Source: an uncultured Bacteroidales bacterium (GTDB lineage: Bacteria > Bacteroidota > Bacteroidia > Bacteroidales > P3). Taken from it: a stretch of DNA of 64,000 nt. Shown here one piece after another: positions 1 through 29,188 of this stretch. A model generated the notes under the pieces. That model worked only from the letters and a program-made list of their open reading frames with translations, searched no databases and had not been told where the DNA came from. Where the stretch lies: assembly GCA_900317285.1 (NCBI GenBank), contig ONGA01000006.1:17683-81682 (forward strand), written 5' to 3'. The translations under genes were made by a program, and so were the position numbers. Within the stretch, counting starts at the first letter, position 1. Each line of letters starts with the position of its first letter.

Positions 1-1268
1 GTCACTGACGTAATAGCAGAACAATTACTAAAAGCATAGTTTGGTATATTTTGTACGTTATTCCCAAATACAACGGTTGACAGGTTTCCACATCCAAAAA
101 ATACACGTAAATACATTGACGAACCCATGGATGTGCAATTCGTAGCATTAAAATATACTGTTGTTATTCCAGTACAATTGCCAAAGGCGTGATCTCCAAT
201 TGTAACTATAGATTCTGGTATTGTTACTGAAGTAATACCCGAGCATTGATAGAACGATTGGGTTCCTATACTAGTGACTGTATTGGGTATTGTTACAGAC
301 GTGATGCTAGAACATCCAAGAAAAGCTTTTTCTCCAATACTGGTTACTGTACTAGGAATCACTATCACCGGTGCAGTTCCCGAATAAGCTGTGAGAGTCG
401 TTTTTGTTGCATCCATGTAAACAAATCCATTTTCGAGGTATCCATTCACCGTTTTTGCACCCCAAGGACTCCCGGAAGCAGAACCACTATAAACAATATT
501 GGCAATTCGTTCAAATGCCCCATACCCAATGCTATTAACAGAATTTGGAATTGTCAAAGATGCTATACCCGTACAATACCCAAAAGCAGAGCTGCCGATT
601 GTTGTTACTGAATTTGGAATCGACACCGAGTTAAGGTTTTTACACATATAGAAGGAAGTGTTTCCAATAGTTGTCACGGAATTGGGAATTATTATAGATG
701 TAATATTATTATTATTTCTAAATGCTGCATTTCCAATACTATTTACTGTATTCGGAATAGTAACCATTGTGGCAGTCCCATAATAACCTGTAAGTAAACT
801 CTTCGTTTGGTCAGAAAAAACAAAACCATCTTCTAGGTATCCATTAACAGTTTTCGCACCCCATGGACTTCCTGTTGCCATTCCAGAATAAACCACATTA
901 TTGACAAACTGAAATGCCTGGTATCCAATGGTTGTAACTGTACTAGGAATTGTTACAGAATAAAGACCTGTGCAATTGTAAAAAGCTTGATCGTTAATTG
1001 CAGTCACAGAATATGTTGTTCCGTTAAAATCCACATTATCTGGGATGATAAGATTGCCTGTCGGTTCAATATAACCATACCAAGAACCTTGTGACATTCC
1101 AGCATTCATTATAGTGGTTGGGCTGCTTACAGTAGCATTTACTCCATCTATTTTGTAATATAAGGTTTGTCCCGTGGGAGCTACTGCGGAGAAATCATAG
1201 GCGTTCGCCACCTTTGGCAATGTCATCGCCATCATAATGACGGCAAGAAATGTAAAAATCTGTTTCAT
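1..1268 (-). CDS. BspA-like leucine-rich-repeat surface protein, 3' part outside the window
   Basis: The reading frame is open from an ATG at 1268 to the window edge, giving about 422 residues without a stop. It begins with a signal peptide (MKQIFTFLAVIMMAMTLPKV, then ANA before YDFSA). The rest is a chain of about 23-residue LRR_5 repeats of the form 'xSIGxxAFxxCxxLxSVxIPxxV', the Treponema pallidum/BspA type found in exported and surface proteins of Bacteroidales and often involved in adhesion. A longer block containing GSPWGAKTVNGYLE occurs twice, at about residues 120-180 and 260-320, so the gene grew by internal duplication. The DNA is more AT-rich than the core genes. The C-terminus, where a sorting signal would be expected, is not in the window. 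A smaller relative lies at 23,891. Family assignment is firm; ligand and anchoring are unknown. Confidence 0.88.
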   Translation of the reverse strand, partial: MKQIFTFLAVIMMAMTLPKVANAYDFSAVAPTGQTLYYKIDGVNATVSSPTTIMNAGMSQGSWYGYIEPTGNLIIPDNVDFNGTTYSVTAINDQAFYNCTGLYSVTIPSTVTTIGYQAFQFVNNVVYSGMATGSPWGAKTVNGYLEDGFVFSDQTKSLLTGYYGTATMVTIPNTVNSIGNAAFRNNNNITSIIIPNSVTTIGNTSFYMCKNLNSVSIPNSVTTIGSSAFGYCTGIASLTIPNSVNSIGYGAFERIANIVYSGSASGSPWGAKTVNGYLENGFVYMDATKTTLTAYSGTAPVIVIPSTVTSIGEKAFLGCSSITSVTIPNTVTSIGTQSFYQCSGITSVTIPESIVTIGDHAFGNCTGITTVYFNATNCTSMGSSMYLRVFFGCGNLSTVVFGNNVQNIPNYAFSNCSAITSV

Positions 1269-1353
1269 ATAAAAAAGGCGTTGAATTATTCTTTTATGTC
1301 ACTTATCATCCTGTGGGCTCTGGATTGCCTTGTACCTGTTAAGCGACGAATAA

Positions 1354-1371
1354 TTCACGCCTAAGCGTGAA
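1354..1371 (-). terminator. Small hairpin after the PIN toxin gene
   Basis: A 7-bp inverted repeat (TTCACGC, 4-nt loop, GCGTGAA) lies in the 243-bp gap between the PIN toxin stop and the start of the BspA-like gene. There is only a weak A/T tail on the minus strand, so terminator function is a guess. I see nothing else clear in this gap. Confidence 0.3.
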
Positions 1372-1511
1372 CTCTCGCAAACTTATTCTCGGTACAAAGA
1401 ATTTTCCAGATTCACAGGTGAGAACAAGAGCGTCAGCTCAATATGATGTCTTTACAATATTTTGCTTGTCACATAAGCATTGTTTTTTTAGTTATTATTC
1501 TATTGGTTGTA

Positions 1512-23288: not shown

Positions 23289-23319
23289 TTTGCCGGTTAA
23301 AATAATATTCGTATTTTTG
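23289..23319 (+). promoter_or_regulatory. Promoter of the candidate structured RNA
   Basis: TTTG (23289-23292), a 19-nt spacer and TATTTTTG (23312-23319): an exact consensus match, with no start codon of a real gene for more than 300 nt downstream. Confidence 0.82.
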
Positions 23320-23324
23320 CACTT

Positions 23325-23600
23325 GCTTTCGAGAGCGAAAGCAGTAAGCAAGAAAAGCATTGCGATACTGTCCTAGTATTAAAATCGCCAATTTTAAGCA
23401 GGAGGAGGTGAGCATTTATGCTTTCGCTTGAGTGTGTATGCTATATCACTGTAGCATATCTTCAGGCGTGAGATATGTTCCATAAGACCCCGTTCCTGCA
23501 AGGTGTTTGGCGATACCTAATACTAACGGATATGAGCACATACCCTCATGCCTTTTCTTATTGTATTTCTTATTGTTATAGAATAACGTTCCGTTGGAGG
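23325..23600 (+). ncRNA. Candidate structured RNA or long structured leader
   Basis: The transcript from the 23,312 promoter would begin with a tight hairpin (GCTTTCG, AGAG, CGAAAGC; within an outer CTTGCTT/AAGCAAG). A three-part long-range stem then closes a domain: 23374-23381 (TAGTATTA) with 23518-23525, 23384-23389 (ATCGCC) with 23509-23514, and 23398-23403 (GCAGGA) with 23494-23499. Inside are TATGCTA/TAGCATA (23437-23443, 23452-23458) and CATATCT/AGATATG (23455-23461, 23471-23477), which overlap and cannot form together. It does not look like tmRNA, RNase P, SRP RNA or a riboswitch I know. No terminator separates it from the gene at 23,647, so it may be a leader. The 3' end is approximate. 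Confidence 0.55.
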
Positions 23601-23646
23601 GTCGGAGTAATAAAAGTTGCGCCCGGCACGTATAAGGGATTACTTT

Positions 23647-23889
23647 ATGCAAAAAAAAACGTACAATGAAGACCAACTACTTCATGCATCAGAACATGAG
23701 ATTAAGAGTTGGGATGGCAAATGGGCATCTGTCGAATTAAATGACGGCGAAAAAATAAATGGCAAAATTAAACAGGTGGAGTATTCTGCATCAACCCCAA
23801 CTTCCAATGGGGATACTTGGGTCTGCCTTGTAATGGAGCATCGCATTTTTGTCAACAATATAAAGTCAATGACCATTAATGAAGAATAA
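23647..23889 (+). CDS. Small 80-residue protein of unknown function
   Basis: Starts MQKKTYNEDQLLHASEHEIK. The core (WDGKWASVELNDGEKINGKI, then HRIFVNNIKSMTI at the end) alternates like a small beta-barrel of the SH3 or Sm type, but I recognise no family. There is no signal peptide. It lies directly after the candidate structured RNA and 1 nt before the BspA-like gene, so the three are probably one transcript. The ATG at 23647 is the only sensible start. Confidence 0.68.
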   Translation: MQKKTYNEDQLLHASEHEIKSWDGKWASVELNDGEKINGKIKQVEYSASTPTSNGDTWVCLVMEHRIFVNNIKSMTINEE

Positions 23890-23890
23890 C

Positions 23891-24751
23891 ATGAAGAAAA
23901 CATTATTATTTGCCAGTATTTTTCTCTTATTGGCTGGATTTGCACAGGCACAGTATGATATATACAATTATCCATTGGGCAATGGAGATACCATATGGTA
24001 TACCATTAATTATGCACAAGGGTCATATGACTCTACTTATGCCATAATAACAACGCCATATACTGATCGTACCTGGAGAGATCATCAAAAGCCAAGTGGT
24101 CAACTGATTATTCCAGACAGTTTACCTTTACCCTGGTGGAGATGCGACACTACAGGATGGGAAAACTATCCCGGCGGTTTTGACCAAGCATGGAGAGATC
24201 TTGCACAAAGAGTTCCTGTAATAATTCTTGGCATGGAGGCATTTGGAGATTGCCATAATATCGTTAGTGTAATTATTCCAAATACAGTCAGAAAAGTCTG
24301 GGCATTCGGTGGCTGCACCGGATTGACATCCGTTGAAATTGGAAAGTTTGTTGAAGACATGAGCTATGCCTTTGATGGCTGCACCCACCTCACGACTATC
24401 CGAAGCCGTGCCGAATATCCTCCCATTTGTGACGAACATACGTTCGATGGCGTGCCAAACTACGCCGATATTATCGTCCCTTGCGGAGCTGCTTACCGAT
24501 ACCAGTTGAGTGACTACTGGAATGCTTTCAGTCGGATCACTGAAGATTGTAGCGATATTAATGACGTGGAGAACGACGGCATACATGTATGGGTAGATGG
24601 CAGACAAATAAAGGTCGAAGGTGCCAAAGGACAACCGTTATTCATATTCGATATAACTGGTCGACAAATAGCAAACAACAATATTCCCACTGGAGCTTAT
24701 CTTGTCAAAATCGGCGATTACCCCGTCCGCAAGGTGGTGGTGATAAGGTAA
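23891..24751 (+). CDS. Small BspA-like protein with secretion-tail-like C-terminus
   Basis: The 286-residue protein begins with a signal peptide (MKKTLLFASIFLLLAGFAQA). The middle contains LRR_5-type units (IPNTVRKVWAFGGCTGLTSV, then MSYAFDGCTHLTTI), a short version of the protein at 1-1268. The last 50 residues (FIFDITGRQIANNN, then GAYLVKIGDYPVRKVVV) resemble the type IX secretion C-terminal sorting domain. It is therefore likely exported and anchored at the surface. The start at 23891 follows the previous stop by 1 nt; an overlapping ATG at 23879 adds four residues and is less likely. Confidence 0.82.
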   Translation: MKKTLLFASIFLLLAGFAQAQYDIYNYPLGNGDTIWYTINYAQGSYDSTYAIITTPYTDRTWRDHQKPSGQLIIPDSLPLPWWRCDTTGWENYPGGFDQAWRDLAQRVPVIILGMEAFGDCHNIVSVIIPNTVRKVWAFGGCTGLTSVEIGKFVEDMSYAFDGCTHLTTIRSRAEYPPICDEHTFDGVPNYADIIVPCGAAYRYQLSDYWNAFSRITEDCSDINDVENDGIHVWVDGRQIKVEGAKGQPLFIFDITGRQIANNNIPTGAYLVKIGDYPVRKVVVIR

Positions 24752-25010: not shown

Positions 25011-25628
25011 CTATCTCTGAAGTTTCTTGACTTCGGCGATAATAGTCGATTTTATCTCTTCCCAGCTAACAGGGATTTGCATCTTGGGCATAGCTTGTTG
25101 TTCAGCATCCTCAAAATAGTTGAGGCTGAGCAATGCACGGAAAAAAGAATGGTTGGGATATTTCTGAGCGTAAAAATCGAGGAGCTCAGAAAGTGTGTAG
25201 TTCTGCAATAAAAAGTAAATGTCGACAAAGTCTTTGCGAGTGCCTCGGCCTTCGATGGCGTTTATCTTCATGGCGGCAATGTCTCGGGGAGAGGCCAGGG
25301 TAATGCCGTCTTCAACAATGGCCGCATCTATCCATGGATACTGGCTGTAATCAATCACATCAACCTTGATACCACGCAAAGCGCCTTGCAATATTCTTTT
25401 TGTGCGGTTGTGAACGGTAAAAGAATCCATTGAGGAAAACATTTCTATAATGTCATCCTGCTCTACTGCAAGAGTTCCAAAGAAATCCAGGTCGATAGAC
25501 TGACGATGACCATACTGCAAAGCAAGGGCTGTACCACCAACCAACCGAAGACCGCTCATTTCGGGTCGGGAGGATAACTCTTTCAGGAGTTCCAGAGTGT
25601 CGGAAAAGACTGTCTGAAGTTGTAACAC
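25011..25628 (-). CDS. AbiEii-type nucleotidyltransferase toxin
   Basis: The 205-residue protein begins MLQLQTVFSDTLELLKELSS and has the AbiEii core LVGGTALALQYGHRQSIDLD at residues 29-48, including the GG and the D-x-D metal pair of the DNA-polymerase-beta-type fold. Relatives transfer nucleotides to tRNA or similar targets and act in type IV toxin-antitoxin systems and phage abortive infection. The partner gene lies upstream with a 46-nt overlap. The conserved opening supports the start at 25628 despite that overlap. Confidence 0.85.
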   Translation of the reverse strand: MLQLQTVFSDTLELLKELSSRPEMSGLRLVGGTALALQYGHRQSIDLDFFGTLAVEQDDIIEMFSSMDSFTVHNRTKRILQGALRGIKVDVIDYSQYPWIDAAIVEDGITLASPRDIAAMKINAIEGRGTRKDFVDIYFLLQNYTLSELLDFYAQKYPNHSFFRALLSLNYFEDAEQQAMPKMQIPVSWEEIKSTIIAEVKKLQR

Positions 25629-27958: not shown

Positions 27959-27966
27959 TAATTTTG
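27959..27966 (+). promoter_or_regulatory. -7 box of the 6S-like RNA
   Basis: TAATTTTG matches TAnnTTTG. Upstream spacing to a T-rich -33 region is 18-19 nt, but the TTTG is imperfect. Confidence 0.6.
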
Positions 27967-27971
27967 CAGTC

Positions 27972-28135
27972 GATTTCAATAGATGGAATCACCGAGGCGT
28001 TATGCTCCGACTGCTAGTTGAAACGTAGGAAATTTCTAACTGAGAACAGGGACGTGTAACGGTTCGCGTGTATTAGCGTGGACTGTTCCCATTTCTTTTC
28101 TCAAAGGCAATTCCTACGGCCTCAACTAGGAGAAA
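27972..28135 (+). ncRNA. Candidate 6S-like RNA or structured leader
   Basis: After a small 5' hairpin (27972-27990), a long hairpin closes with CTAGTTGA/TCAACTAG (28014-28021, 28122-28129) and CGTAGGAA/TTCCTACG (28024-28031, 28111-28118). An asymmetric central bubble (28032-28040 opposite 28104-28110) follows, then TGAGAA/TTCTCA (28041-28046, 28098-28103) and GGGAC/GTTCCC with one bulged base. A long hairpin with a central bubble and a 116-nt span recalls 6S RNA and the 6S-Flavo class of Bacteroidota. I matched architecture only, not a covariance model. It may instead be the leader of the lipoprotein gene at 28,210, since no clear terminator separates them. Confidence 0.5.
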
Positions 28136-28209
28136 CGGCATACGGCGCCACGCTTCTTTTATTGTTGCTTGTTGCGGCACGGGAGAGCGGAACAAAAACA
28201 TCAAACGAA

Positions 28210-28671
28210 ATGAAAAAGCTAAAAGTATTGGCAATGATGCTTTGCATCGCAGCAATTGGATTAACAACGTCCTGCACCAAAGACGATGAAGACTTAATTG
28301 TTGGTGAATGGAAACTTACCTACGCCGCACAGACTGTTGTTCAAGTTGATTATTACGGTGAGGTGCATAATATTAGTTGGACGACCAAAGAGGACCCTCT
28401 TGATGCAAAATGGCAGTTCACAAAAGATGGAATAATCTACTCCCAAGCAAAATACAGCAATGGGGAAGTTTACGAACACCAGGACAGATACGTTGTGCGT
28501 GACGGATATCTTGTATTATCACAGGATGAGGACATGTTCTGGGTAAAAAAATACAAAATCGAGAAACTTACCAACGACAAATTAATCCTCACATATAATT
28601 ACGATGGTGAAATACCTGACCACATGGCCGAGTACACACAGGTCGTCTGGGTGGAGTTTGAAAAAATCTGA
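28210..28671 (+). CDS. Lipocalin-like lipoprotein, first of a tandem pair
   Basis: A 153-residue lipoprotein (signal MKKLKVLAMMLCIAAIGLTT, then SC with lipid on the Cys). LIVGEWKLTY after the Cys opens a lipocalin-like beta-barrel domain, and the rest alternates in short strands. The next gene, 55 nt downstream, is a clear duplicate. The start at 28210 gives the complete signal peptide; upstream in-frame sequence belongs to the structured RNA. Role at the outer membrane is unknown. Confidence 0.83.
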   Translation: MKKLKVLAMMLCIAAIGLTTSCTKDDEDLIVGEWKLTYAAQTVVQVDYYGEVHNISWTTKEDPLDAKWQFTKDGIIYSQAKYSNGEVYEHQDRYVVRDGYLVLSQDEDMFWVKKYKIEKLTNDKLILTYNYDGEIPDHMAEYTQVVWVEFEKI

Positions 28672-28726: not shown

Positions 28727-29188
28727 ATGAAGAAAATGAAGTTTTTTGCAATGGTGCTTTGCATCACGACATTTGGGATGATAACAACATCCTGTTCCAA
28801 AGACGACAAAGACCTGATTGTTGGCGAATGGAAACTTACGTACTTGACATCAACTAGTGTTGAAATCGACGATAACGGTCGTATTTACCGACTAACAGGA
28901 ACCTCCGACGAATATCCCGATGATTTCGAAGAAAAAATGAAGTTTACAAAAGATGGAATAGTCTACACATGGGCGTACGTGAATGGGGAAGTTAACGAAA
29001 ATCAAGATAGATATGTTGTGCGCGACGGATATCTAGTATTGGAAGGGGGTATTGGGGGAGTAAAGAAATTTCAAATCGAGAAACTTGTTAAAAAAGAATT
29101 AATTCTTTCGTACAACTACGATGGCGAAATTCCAGATCACGATGCTAATTATTTAGAGCGACTCTGGATGGAATTTAAGAAAATCTGA
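28727..29188 (+). CDS. Lipocalin-like lipoprotein, second of a tandem pair
   Basis: Also 153 residues, with lipoprotein signal MKKMKFFAMVLCITTFGMIT, then TSC. It shares LIVGEWKLTY, QDRYVVRDGYLVL and YNYDGEIPDH with its upstream neighbour, while the middle (residues 45-75) has diverged. The duplication kept length and ends but changed the barrel loops, which suggests different ligands or partners. Confidence 0.83.
   Translation: MKKMKFFAMVLCITTFGMITTSCSKDDKDLIVGEWKLTYLTSTSVEIDDNGRIYRLTGTSDEYPDDFEEKMKFTKDGIVYTWAYVNGEVNENQDRYVVRDGYLVLEGGIGGVKKFQIEKLVKKELILSYNYDGEIPDHDANYLERLWMEFKKI

What the first reader, a model, noticed from the sequence alone, without database searches (positions are those of the whole stretch)
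23289..23646. Candidate new structured RNA with mutually exclusive hairpins upstream of a small protein and a surface protein
An exact promoter drives more than 300 nt with no gene. Three separate segments (8, 6 and 6 bp) pair in nested order to close one domain, and inside it two 7-bp hairpins share bases 23455-23458, so only one can form. That is switch-like architecture. I do not recognise it as tmRNA, RNase P, SRP RNA or a known riboswitch. It may be a stand-alone RNA or a leader controlling the 80-residue protein and the BspA-like protein.
Basis: partly seen in the sequence, partly recalled or inferred. Interest (0 to 1): 0.72.

Follow-up and report, generated by a model that had tools for sequence, protein, structure and literature searches.

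The report
Candidate Bacteroidota leader RNA switch
The stretch is one copy of a large folded RNA, absent as such from the RNA catalogue searched here, that sits in front of many secreted, surface and defence genes across Bacteroidota and looks built to decide, by choosing between two exclusive base pairings, whether transcription stops or runs on into the gene.

Summary
The structured RNA is real. Its nested helices covary over 61 homologues (245 compensated cells, 76 in shuffles, 0/500). Rfam 15 has no family at the RNA, here or in 90 loci with relatives; in two, a known DUF805-type motif follows it. Phylum comparison shows another exclusive pair. Strand B (23464-23472) pairs locally with A (antiterminator) or with A' (23545-23553), just before a U-tract (terminator); both covary. 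A hairpin loop past the terminator also complements A'. Covariance models find the family in 120 of 295 order genomes and, with an earlier model, 51 of 395 phylum genomes. This genome has at least 12 copies, three in the window. Of 213 distinct copies, the next gene is co-directional in 175, opposed in 8, uncalled in 30; its protein looks secreted three times as often as neighbours' (crude rule). Best reading: a cis-acting strand-exchange transcription attenuator, riboswitch-like, signal unknown. No transcript or ligand data exist here.

The parts
23289..23319 (+). promoter: TTTG at 23289-23292 and TAnnTTTG at 23312-23319
   Evidence: read; TAnnTTTG in 57 of 62 genus copies
23322..23347 (+). 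5' hairpin 1 (GCTTTC/GAAAGC), other copies GCTTAC/GTAAGC
   Evidence: alignments; by inspection, not counted
23374..23381 (+). helix P2, 5' strand (partner 23518-23525)
   Evidence: covariation; phylum
23385..23391 (+). helix P3, 5' strand (partner 23507-23513, in the loop of P7: pseudoknot)
   Evidence: P3 and P7 together 33 double-change cells against 5.8 shuffled, 0/500; other strands in other copies
23399..23406 (+). helix P4, 5' strand (partner 23491-23499)
   Evidence: register-free phylum test, own 19.87 against swapped 14.20, 0/60
23415..23430 (+). strand A (two overlapping candidates: 23415-23423 and 23422-23430) that pairs with B
   Evidence: phylum counterpart
   Evidence: 96.3% of cells paired
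23464..23472 (+). strand B (AGGCGTGAG), shared by antiterminator A:B and terminator B:A'
23501..23518 (+). hairpin P7 (AGGTG/TACCT) whose loop holds the 3' strand of P3
23531..23550 (+). local hairpin TATGAG/CTCATG (CATGAG/CTCATG in most copies), an alternative partner for the 3' arm
   Evidence: mostly invariant
23545..23563 (+). strand A' (CTCATGCCT) and U-tract: terminator-like
   Evidence: U-rich columns after A' in the phylum alignment
23589..23607 (+). downstream hairpin; loop GAGGGT 23597-23602 complementary to ACCCTC 23542-23547
   Evidence: 61 copies: own 14.46, swapped 12.51, sd 0.28, 0/200
23616..23638 (+). 23-nt motif GTTGCGCCCGGCACGTATAAGGG before the start codon; seen in the genus only, also found without this RNA
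23647..23889 (+). 80-aa protein, no Pfam family
23891..24751 (+). secreted BspA-type LRR protein
   Evidence: PF13306, E 1e-7
27959..28168 (+). second copy with its promoter TAATTTTG at 27959-27966; B 28075-28081, A' 28148-28154; before a lipoprotein-like ORF starting near 28210
   Evidence: R2 E 3.7e-4, R3 E 3.4e-11, fold z -5.17
1263..1450 (-). third copy; its U-tract ends a few nt before the ATG of a BspA-type LRR gene
   Evidence: R2 E 5.4e-4, R3 E 2.6e-8, fold z -5.86; LRR_5 E 8.4e-76

Best explanation
It is a cis-acting 5' leader RNA that controls the gene behind it by transcription attenuation through strand exchange. Shown by comparison: an irregular arm P2-P3-P4 with a pseudoknot (P3 in the loop of P7) encloses a hairpin A:B; a strand A' directly before a U-tract resembles A and can take over B; both pairings covary; in many copies a hairpin loop past the U-tract is complementary to A'; the gene behind is nearly always co-directional. 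Inferred: when the arm is folded, and perhaps held by a ligand or protein, A:B persists and RNA polymerase reads through. When it is not, the emerging A' displaces A, B:A' forms a terminator, and transcription stops. After read-through the downstream loop would hold A' and keep it from invading B. The signal is unknown. The mix of secreted, surface and defence genes suggests a general cue rather than one pathway's metabolite.
For: Covariation of the whole genus structure: 245 double-change cells against 75.9 shuffled, 0/500. Pseudoknot P3 with P7: 33 against 5.8, 0/500. Phylum alignment of 56: P2, P3 and P7 together, 170 against 51.7, 0/500. A:B: 45 against 13.7. B:A': 33 against 9.4, both 0/500. 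In an unbiased column scan of 54 copies (45 of them not in that alignment), one B column covaries with A and with A' at once. Arm A' against own interior scores 22.25, against other copies' interiors 18.03 (sd 0.26), n=103. A:B and B:A' of at least 6 bp each, overlapping in B, occur in 93 of 103 phylum copies (swapped 79%, shuffled interior 18%). Nine columns after A' hold T in 35 to 51 of 56 sequences. Downstream loop against A': 14.46 against 12.51, 0/200, n=61; phylum 14.29 against 12.94, 0/60, n=103. Next gene: 175 co-directional, 8 opposed, 30 none, of 213 distinct copies; upstream gene 121, 76, 16.
Against: No transcript, termination or ligand data. In most copies of this genus A' and B are nearly invariant, so the switch rests on phylum and class-B/C copies; swapping arms among genus copies changes nothing (0.98 against 0.98). 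The B:A' stem would have a loop of 72 nt in the window, unusual for an intrinsic terminator. Only 33 of 61 genus copies pair A' with the downstream loop over 6 bp or more; most others manage 4 (rows). A pairing that arises after the terminator cannot itself act as an antiterminator, so the latch role is a guess. The P1/terminator overlap seen in this genus is not supported across the phylum. The regulated genes share no obvious pathway. One paralogue in this genome has lost the whole domain.
Confidence: 0.55

Rival explanations
1. A protein-dependent antitermination signal: the folded arm recruits a factor (as UpxY/LoaP-type NusG paralogues or put/EAR RNAs do, recalled) that lets polymerase pass the terminator.
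For: The RNA precedes a capsule-export-like operon in Bacteroides timonensis (L445; named from the sequence). Conserved arm, terminator and operon behind fit.
Against: Many downstream units look like one or a few short genes. Core helices differ between copies of one genome, so only the shape could be recognised. No factor gene was sought.
Confidence: 0.17
2. A stability or translation-control leader: the U-tract is not a terminator, and the exclusive pairings set access to the start codon or RNase cutting.
For: The U-tract lies a few nt from the ATG in some copies (window 1263-1450; L426). The downstream hairpin pairs with A' only in read-through RNA. In two loci a DUF805-type cis-regulatory motif of Rfam follows the U-tract.
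Against: A covarying stem followed by nine U-rich columns is what intrinsic terminators look like.
Confidence: 0.16
3. A trans-acting small RNA that happens to be encoded before genes.
For: Own promoter, 5' hairpin and terminator would give an RNA of about 230 nt (read).
Against: Co-directionality 175 to 8 and covariation of A' with the downstream hairpin of its own mRNA point to action in cis.
Confidence: 0.07
4. A DNA-level repeat or recombination platform (cassette or transposon end).
For: Multi-copy, before unrelated genes; the 23-nt motif recurs before successive genes; copies lie near contig ends in some assemblies.
Against: Compensatory changes in many helices; no integron integrase over cut-off in the 25 genus genomes searched, 1 of 41 genomes overall. 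Target duplications were not searched for.
Confidence: 0.05

Closest known systems
Transcriptional riboswitches working by strand displacement (ZTP/pfl, fluoride; only the starts of the abstracts PMC10085676 and PMC11077080 seen, in the listing)
   Same: pseudoknotted domain, exclusive antiterminator and terminator, U-tract, gene in cis
   Different: no ligand known; no constant ligand pocket evident because core helices vary freely; no Rfam riboswitch matches; extra hairpin past the terminator that pairs with it
DUF805 and DUF805b RNA (Rfam RF03081, RF02914, clan CL00115, cis-regulatory)
   Same: follow this leader in two loci, 30 nt (L172) and 16 nt (L394) past its hit, before the gene
   Different: short motifs (68 and 35 positions) that lie after the U-tract, not at the leader; above cut-off in only 2 of the 90 loci with a copy; not in the window. 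The paper I recall as their source was not held.
Flavo-1, Bacteroidales-1, Bacteroides-1 and other Rfam families of Bacteroidota (Weinberg 2010, passages of PMC2864571)
   Same: multi-copy or conserved RNAs of the same phylum
   Different: none matches these RNAs in the scans made, including four loci with Flavobacterium and Tenacibaculum copies at E up to 5
UpxY, LoaP and RfaH-type antitermination leaders (recalled; listing only)
   Same: leader with terminator before surface-polysaccharide operons
   Different: no NusG paralogue tested; here often short units
Structured 5' transcripts of Flavobacterium psychrophilum (passages of PMC9723704)
   Same: structured 5' elements outside Rfam in the phylum
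   Different: the passages name pheA, hisG, ftsY, acsA, alaS and rimP leaders; no multi-copy family like this is described in the passages seen

Membership tests
Rfam 15 families (4227 models), at the leader itself | score at or above the family's gathering cut-off | tested here: not met
   none in the window or at the RNA in 90 loci holding a copy, of 93 scanned. Overlapping chance-level matches: WLE3 on the other strand E 2.4, rimP E 4.8, mir-368 E 0.73, all below cut-off.
DUF805 / DUF805b RNA | score at or above cut-off | tested here: not met
   not in the window; above cut-off just past the leader in 2 of 90 loci (L172 68.5 bits, L394 35.9 bits against 35.6)
Transcriptional riboswitch | conserved folded domain with compensatory changes | tested here: met
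Transcriptional riboswitch | exclusive antiterminator and terminator sharing a strand | tested here: met
   met by covariation only
Transcriptional riboswitch | invariant unpaired nucleotides forming a ligand pocket | tested here: inconclusive
   some conserved joining bases (AAAGCGU, GAAA), but no clear pocket
Transcriptional riboswitch | binds a ligand and changes expression | not testable with these tools
   -
Transcriptional riboswitch | downstream genes share a ligand-related pathway | tested here: not met
   of 10 of the 11 downstream ORFs of the R3 copies in this genome: LRR_5 2, OmpA 1, Mrr/ResIII 1, no Pfam family 6
Intrinsic terminator | stem directly followed by U-tract | tested here: met
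   B:A' covaries; nine following columns hold T in 35-51 of 56; termination itself not shown
Integron cassette platform | integron integrase in the genome | tested here: not met
   TIGR02249 over cut-off in 1 of 41 genomes, none of the 25 of the genus
Trans-acting sRNA | independent of the neighbouring gene | tested here: not met
   next gene co-directional 175, opposed 8, none 30 of 213
UpxY-type antitermination leader | cognate NusG paralogue encoded by the operon | not tested
   no search made; none noticed in the ORFs printed

The most novel reading that the evidence does not exclude
A phylum-wide class of Bacteroidota riboregulator in which the recognition core is a self-complementary barcode. 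By the best-arrangement finder, ten different P3 strands occur in the 12 copies of this genome (the window copy). Near-identical downstream genes can carry leaders whose P2, P3 and P4 differ in a compensated way (98.3% gene against 73.2% RNA; 98.2% against 76.4% within one genome). Copies would be kept orthogonal so that they do not cross-pair, and one general signal would gate surface and defence genes through the shared A/B/A' exchange and the downstream latch.
Probability: 0.18. Interest if true: 0.9.

Novelty: new variant of a known kind. Interest (0 to 1): 0.8.

Why it matters
If the attenuation reading holds, a large share of Bacteroidota, including gut Bacteroides and Prevotella, place many secreted, adhesin-like and anti-phage genes behind one type of RNA switch that the RNA catalogue searched here lacks. 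It would give a handle on how these bacteria turn surface genes on and off, and a possible new class of signal to identify. The A/B/A' strands are defined base by base, so the idea can be tested directly.

Tried and rejected
A helix between the 5' linker AAAGCAT and ATGCTTT: conserved in most genus copies but not compensated where it changes (alignment). Its phylum counterpart P0b gave 12 against 4.6 double changes but failed the register-free test (own 11.52, swapped 12.36), so it is not claimed. P1 (TGTCC/GGACA) overlapping the terminator: attractive in the genus, not supported in the phylum. P5 is weak. P1b (X with Y) is moderately supported (48 against 23.1; register-free z 10.6) but crosses P2 and is left open. 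An A/U-rich hairpin around the P3 5' strand, which would make P3 a kissing loop, is weak: 158 of 191 against 144.7 swapped, largest swap 155.

Integron idea: raised by the 23-nt motif before successive genes, not supported. Flavo-1 and other Rfam families: no match at the leader. Ten paper searches, one of which returned nothing, plus term look-ups in five papers, one of them without a hit, showed no description of this RNA. The library is open-access only, the 2017 paper that I recall as the source of the DUF805 motifs is not held, and supplements were not available, so the thousands of candidates of PMC8040213 could hold fragments of it.

Rows dropped and limits: L098 (short matched piece only) and L083 (no 3' half) were left out of A1. 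Of the 119 loci only the 80 listed were used. In one search, L179 had no anchor, 4 of 107 copies had no T-run, and in 5 more (L171, L203, L231, L233, L240) the regex took an earlier T-run; all 103 were kept in the count. One search counted 220 copies with 7 repeats; one search repeats it on 213. In one search, 17 of 48 copies exceed every one of 240 shuffles; the observed median is 49, the shuffle 95th percentile 35 and the largest shuffle 49. E-values of the short-calibrated models are rough, only a capped number of candidates per genome was scored, and the fold is nearly palindromic, so weaker hits on the opposite strand occur. A non-Bacteroidota control was attempted (E. coli K-12) but its record was not held for searching, so specificity outside the phylum was not measured. 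The signal-peptide test is a crude rule of my own. ORFs were called mechanically.

Full report
What is there. The stretch 23289-23646 begins with a Bacteroidota-type promoter (TTTG 23289-23292, TAnnTTTG 23312-23319), and no ORF in it looks like a gene (conservation not tested). As RNA, 23322-23650 folds to -109.4 kcal/mol against -82.9 +/- 4.75 for shuffles (z -5.57, 0/100). Rfam 15 has no family there at gathering score. At E up to 10 there are three hits below cut-off, one of which (WLE3, other strand, E 2.4) overlaps the leader.

Homologues. A nucleotide search found relatives in 33 of 61 genomes: 31 of the 37 genus genomes, a few by short pieces only, and two others by short pieces. Of 60 stretches fetched, one (L098) had only a short matched piece and one (L083) lacked the 3' half. 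The remaining 58, two of them holding two copies each, plus the window make alignment A1 of 61 sequences. In A1 the given structure (P1-P4, the A:B region, the lineage hairpin and the terminator hairpin) keeps 95.3% of cells paired, with 245 double-change cells against 75.9 in shuffles (0/500; sliding the partner by 1-3 columns gives 23-56). P3 lies in the loop of a further hairpin P7, so the two form a pseudoknot; together they give 33 double changes against 5.8 (0/500).

Breadth. A covariance model from A1 (R1) hits 98 of 120 genus genomes and 48 of 295 order genomes in 32 of 184 genera. Their titles include Prevotella, Bacteroides, Alistipes, Dysgonomonas, Barnesiella, Coprobacter, Muribaculaceae, Tenacibaculum, Flavobacterium and an Ignavibacteria MAG. 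A model from 56 diverse copies out of these loci and the order hits (R2) hits 51 of 395 phylum genomes, 39 of 40 genus genomes with up to 14 copies, and 8 of 8 named assemblies, Bacteroides timonensis with 14 (those assemblies were chosen because they hold the pattern). A third model (R3) hits 120 of 295 order genomes, 87 of 184 genera.

Rfam again. Of 93 loci scanned, 90 of which hold a copy, none has a match over cut-off at the leader. Chance-level overlaps were rimP (E 4.8) and mir-368 (E 0.73). In two loci a known cis-regulatory motif follows directly: DUF805 (RF03081, 68.5 bits) 30 nt past the hit in L172, and DUF805b (RF02914, 35.9 bits, cut-off 35.6) 16 nt past it in L394 (sequence). 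So the leader itself is not in Rfam, but in some loci Rfam already covers a short motif between it and the gene.

This genome and window. R3 finds 11 copies in the genome (all E at most 4.1e-4). The copy of the finding scores poorly with R3 (E 0.044) but well with R2 (E 3.6e-15), so the count is at least 12. Three lie in the window: 23344-23566 (+), 27984-28168 (+) and 1263-1450 (-). The other two fold with z -5.17 and -5.86. A thirteenth locus on contig C7 has the promoter and 5' hairpin joined straight to the terminator's 3' half, with the whole domain missing, before a BspA-like gene.

The switch. In the phylum alignment of 56 (A3), P2, P3 and P7 give 170 double-change cells against 51.7 (0/500). 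The inner hairpin A:B gives 45 against 13.7, and the alternative pairing of B with A', the strand directly before the U-tract, gives 33 against 9.4, both 0/500. Nine columns after A' hold T in 35 to 51 of the 56 sequences. Register-free tests agree: A' against the own interior 22.25, against interiors of other copies 18.03 (sd 0.26), against shuffled interiors 13.46, n=103 of 107. In 93 of 103 phylum copies and 60 of 61 genus copies, A:B and B:A' of at least 6 bp overlap in B. Swapped arms give 79% and 98%, because the arms are conserved; shuffled interiors give 18% and 26%. In 54 copies, 45 of them not in A3 (A5), an unbiased scan of column pairs ranks five P2 pairs first. Next come one A column with one B column, and the same B column with an A' column. 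A5 was aligned to a model holding P2, P7 and A:B, so the A' pair is the independent one. In the window B is 23464-23472, A' 23545-23553, and A lies in 23415-23430.

Downstream latch. Between U-tract and gene most genus copies have a hairpin whose loop is complementary to A' (window ACCCTC with GAGGGT). Its stem changes with compensation by inspection. Of 23 copies with AGTCTC, 21 carry GAGACTT, GGGACTT or GAGGCTT by regex, and the one with AATCTC carries GAGATTT. Own against swapped: 14.46 against 12.51 (0/200, n=61); phylum 14.29 against 12.94 (0/60, n=103). Against it: only 33 of 61 genus copies pair over 6 bp or more, most others (AACCTC with GAGGGT) over 4. Four (L040, L055, L077, L087) show no such hairpin, and many Prevotella-type copies lack a strong match.

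Genes. Over 213 distinct copies the next gene within 800 nt is co-directional in 175, opposed in 8 and uncalled in 30; upstream genes are 121, 76 and 16. A crude signal-peptide rule fits 82 of 175 downstream proteins against 72 of 474 neighbours (with repeats 180, 8, 32 of 220 and 86 of 180 against 74 of 491). Of ten downstream proteins of this genome, two are BspA LRR, one OmpA, one an Mrr-type restriction enzyme and six have no Pfam family (the 63-aa ORF behind an eleventh copy was left out). The window's own gene pair is an unknown 80-aa protein and a BspA LRR protein. In Bacteroides timonensis one copy precedes a capsule-export-like operon and three precede paralogous secreted-protein operons (named from sequence, not from a family scan).

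Variable core. P3 strands differ widely yet stay complementary. For 48 class-B/C copies the best P7/P3/P2 arrangement scores a median 49 against a shuffle 95th percentile of 35; 17 exceed every shuffle and carry 10 different P3 strands. Among 12 pairs of loci with near-identical downstream genes, the RNA is less alike than the gene in 9 and more alike in 3; the extremes are 98.3% against 73.2%, and, within one genome, 98.2% against 76.4%. Non-coding RNA may simply drift faster than coding sequence, so orthogonality is only a possibility.

Mechanism. The anatomy fits attenuation by strand exchange: a local A:B hairpin held in a folded, pseudoknotted arm, and a later strand A' that can take over B directly before a U-tract. 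That is how several transcriptional riboswitches work (abstract starts). It works like them; membership is open, because no ligand, no pocket and no common pathway was found. The direction of the switch (folded arm means read-through) and the latch role are inference.

Limits. No expression data, no control outside the phylum, rough E-values, mechanical ORF calls, and an open-access paper library without supplements.

Noticed in passing
window 23616-23638; 24 places in 12 of 41 genomes: A 23-nt motif GTTGNGCNCGRCACGNATNAGNG sits 8-10 nt before start codons in the copies inspected, sometimes before successive genes 600-1400 bp apart, and CCC/GGG changes to CAC/GTG together in some. It looks like a small RNA motif or a cassette boundary; the reversed pattern has 0 matches. 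All matches lie in the genus.
   Followed up: partly
L172:1403-1471 (-) and L394:922-957 (-): Rfam motifs DUF805 and DUF805b directly follow this leader in two loci, so those cis-regulatory motifs and this leader may form one regulatory region.
   Followed up: partly
G000:C7:185601-185732 (L002): A copy of the leader with promoter, 5' hairpin and downstream hairpin but the whole domain deleted, before a BspA-like gene: a natural deletion mutant.
   Followed up: partly
genus copies such as L052, L063, L065, L073: In a subset the lineage-specific hairpin carries an extra CTCACGCCT or CTCATGCCT, an exact or near-exact complement of B: a third candidate partner.
   Followed up: no
L312-L320 (viral contigs): Nine predicted viral contigs carry the core pattern, and R2 hits all nine. 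Phage carriage was not examined.
   Followed up: no
G266, G152, G052, G293, G189: Several copies lie a few hundred bases from contig ends, and two in G266 share near-identical downstream sequence, which suggests repeated units that break assemblies.
   Followed up: partly
window 28078-28671 and 28727-29188: Two similar lipoprotein-like genes in tandem behind the second leader copy.
   Followed up: no
window 25011-25628 (-): AbiEii-type nucleotidyltransferase (PF08843) next to the finding's gene pair.
   Followed up: no
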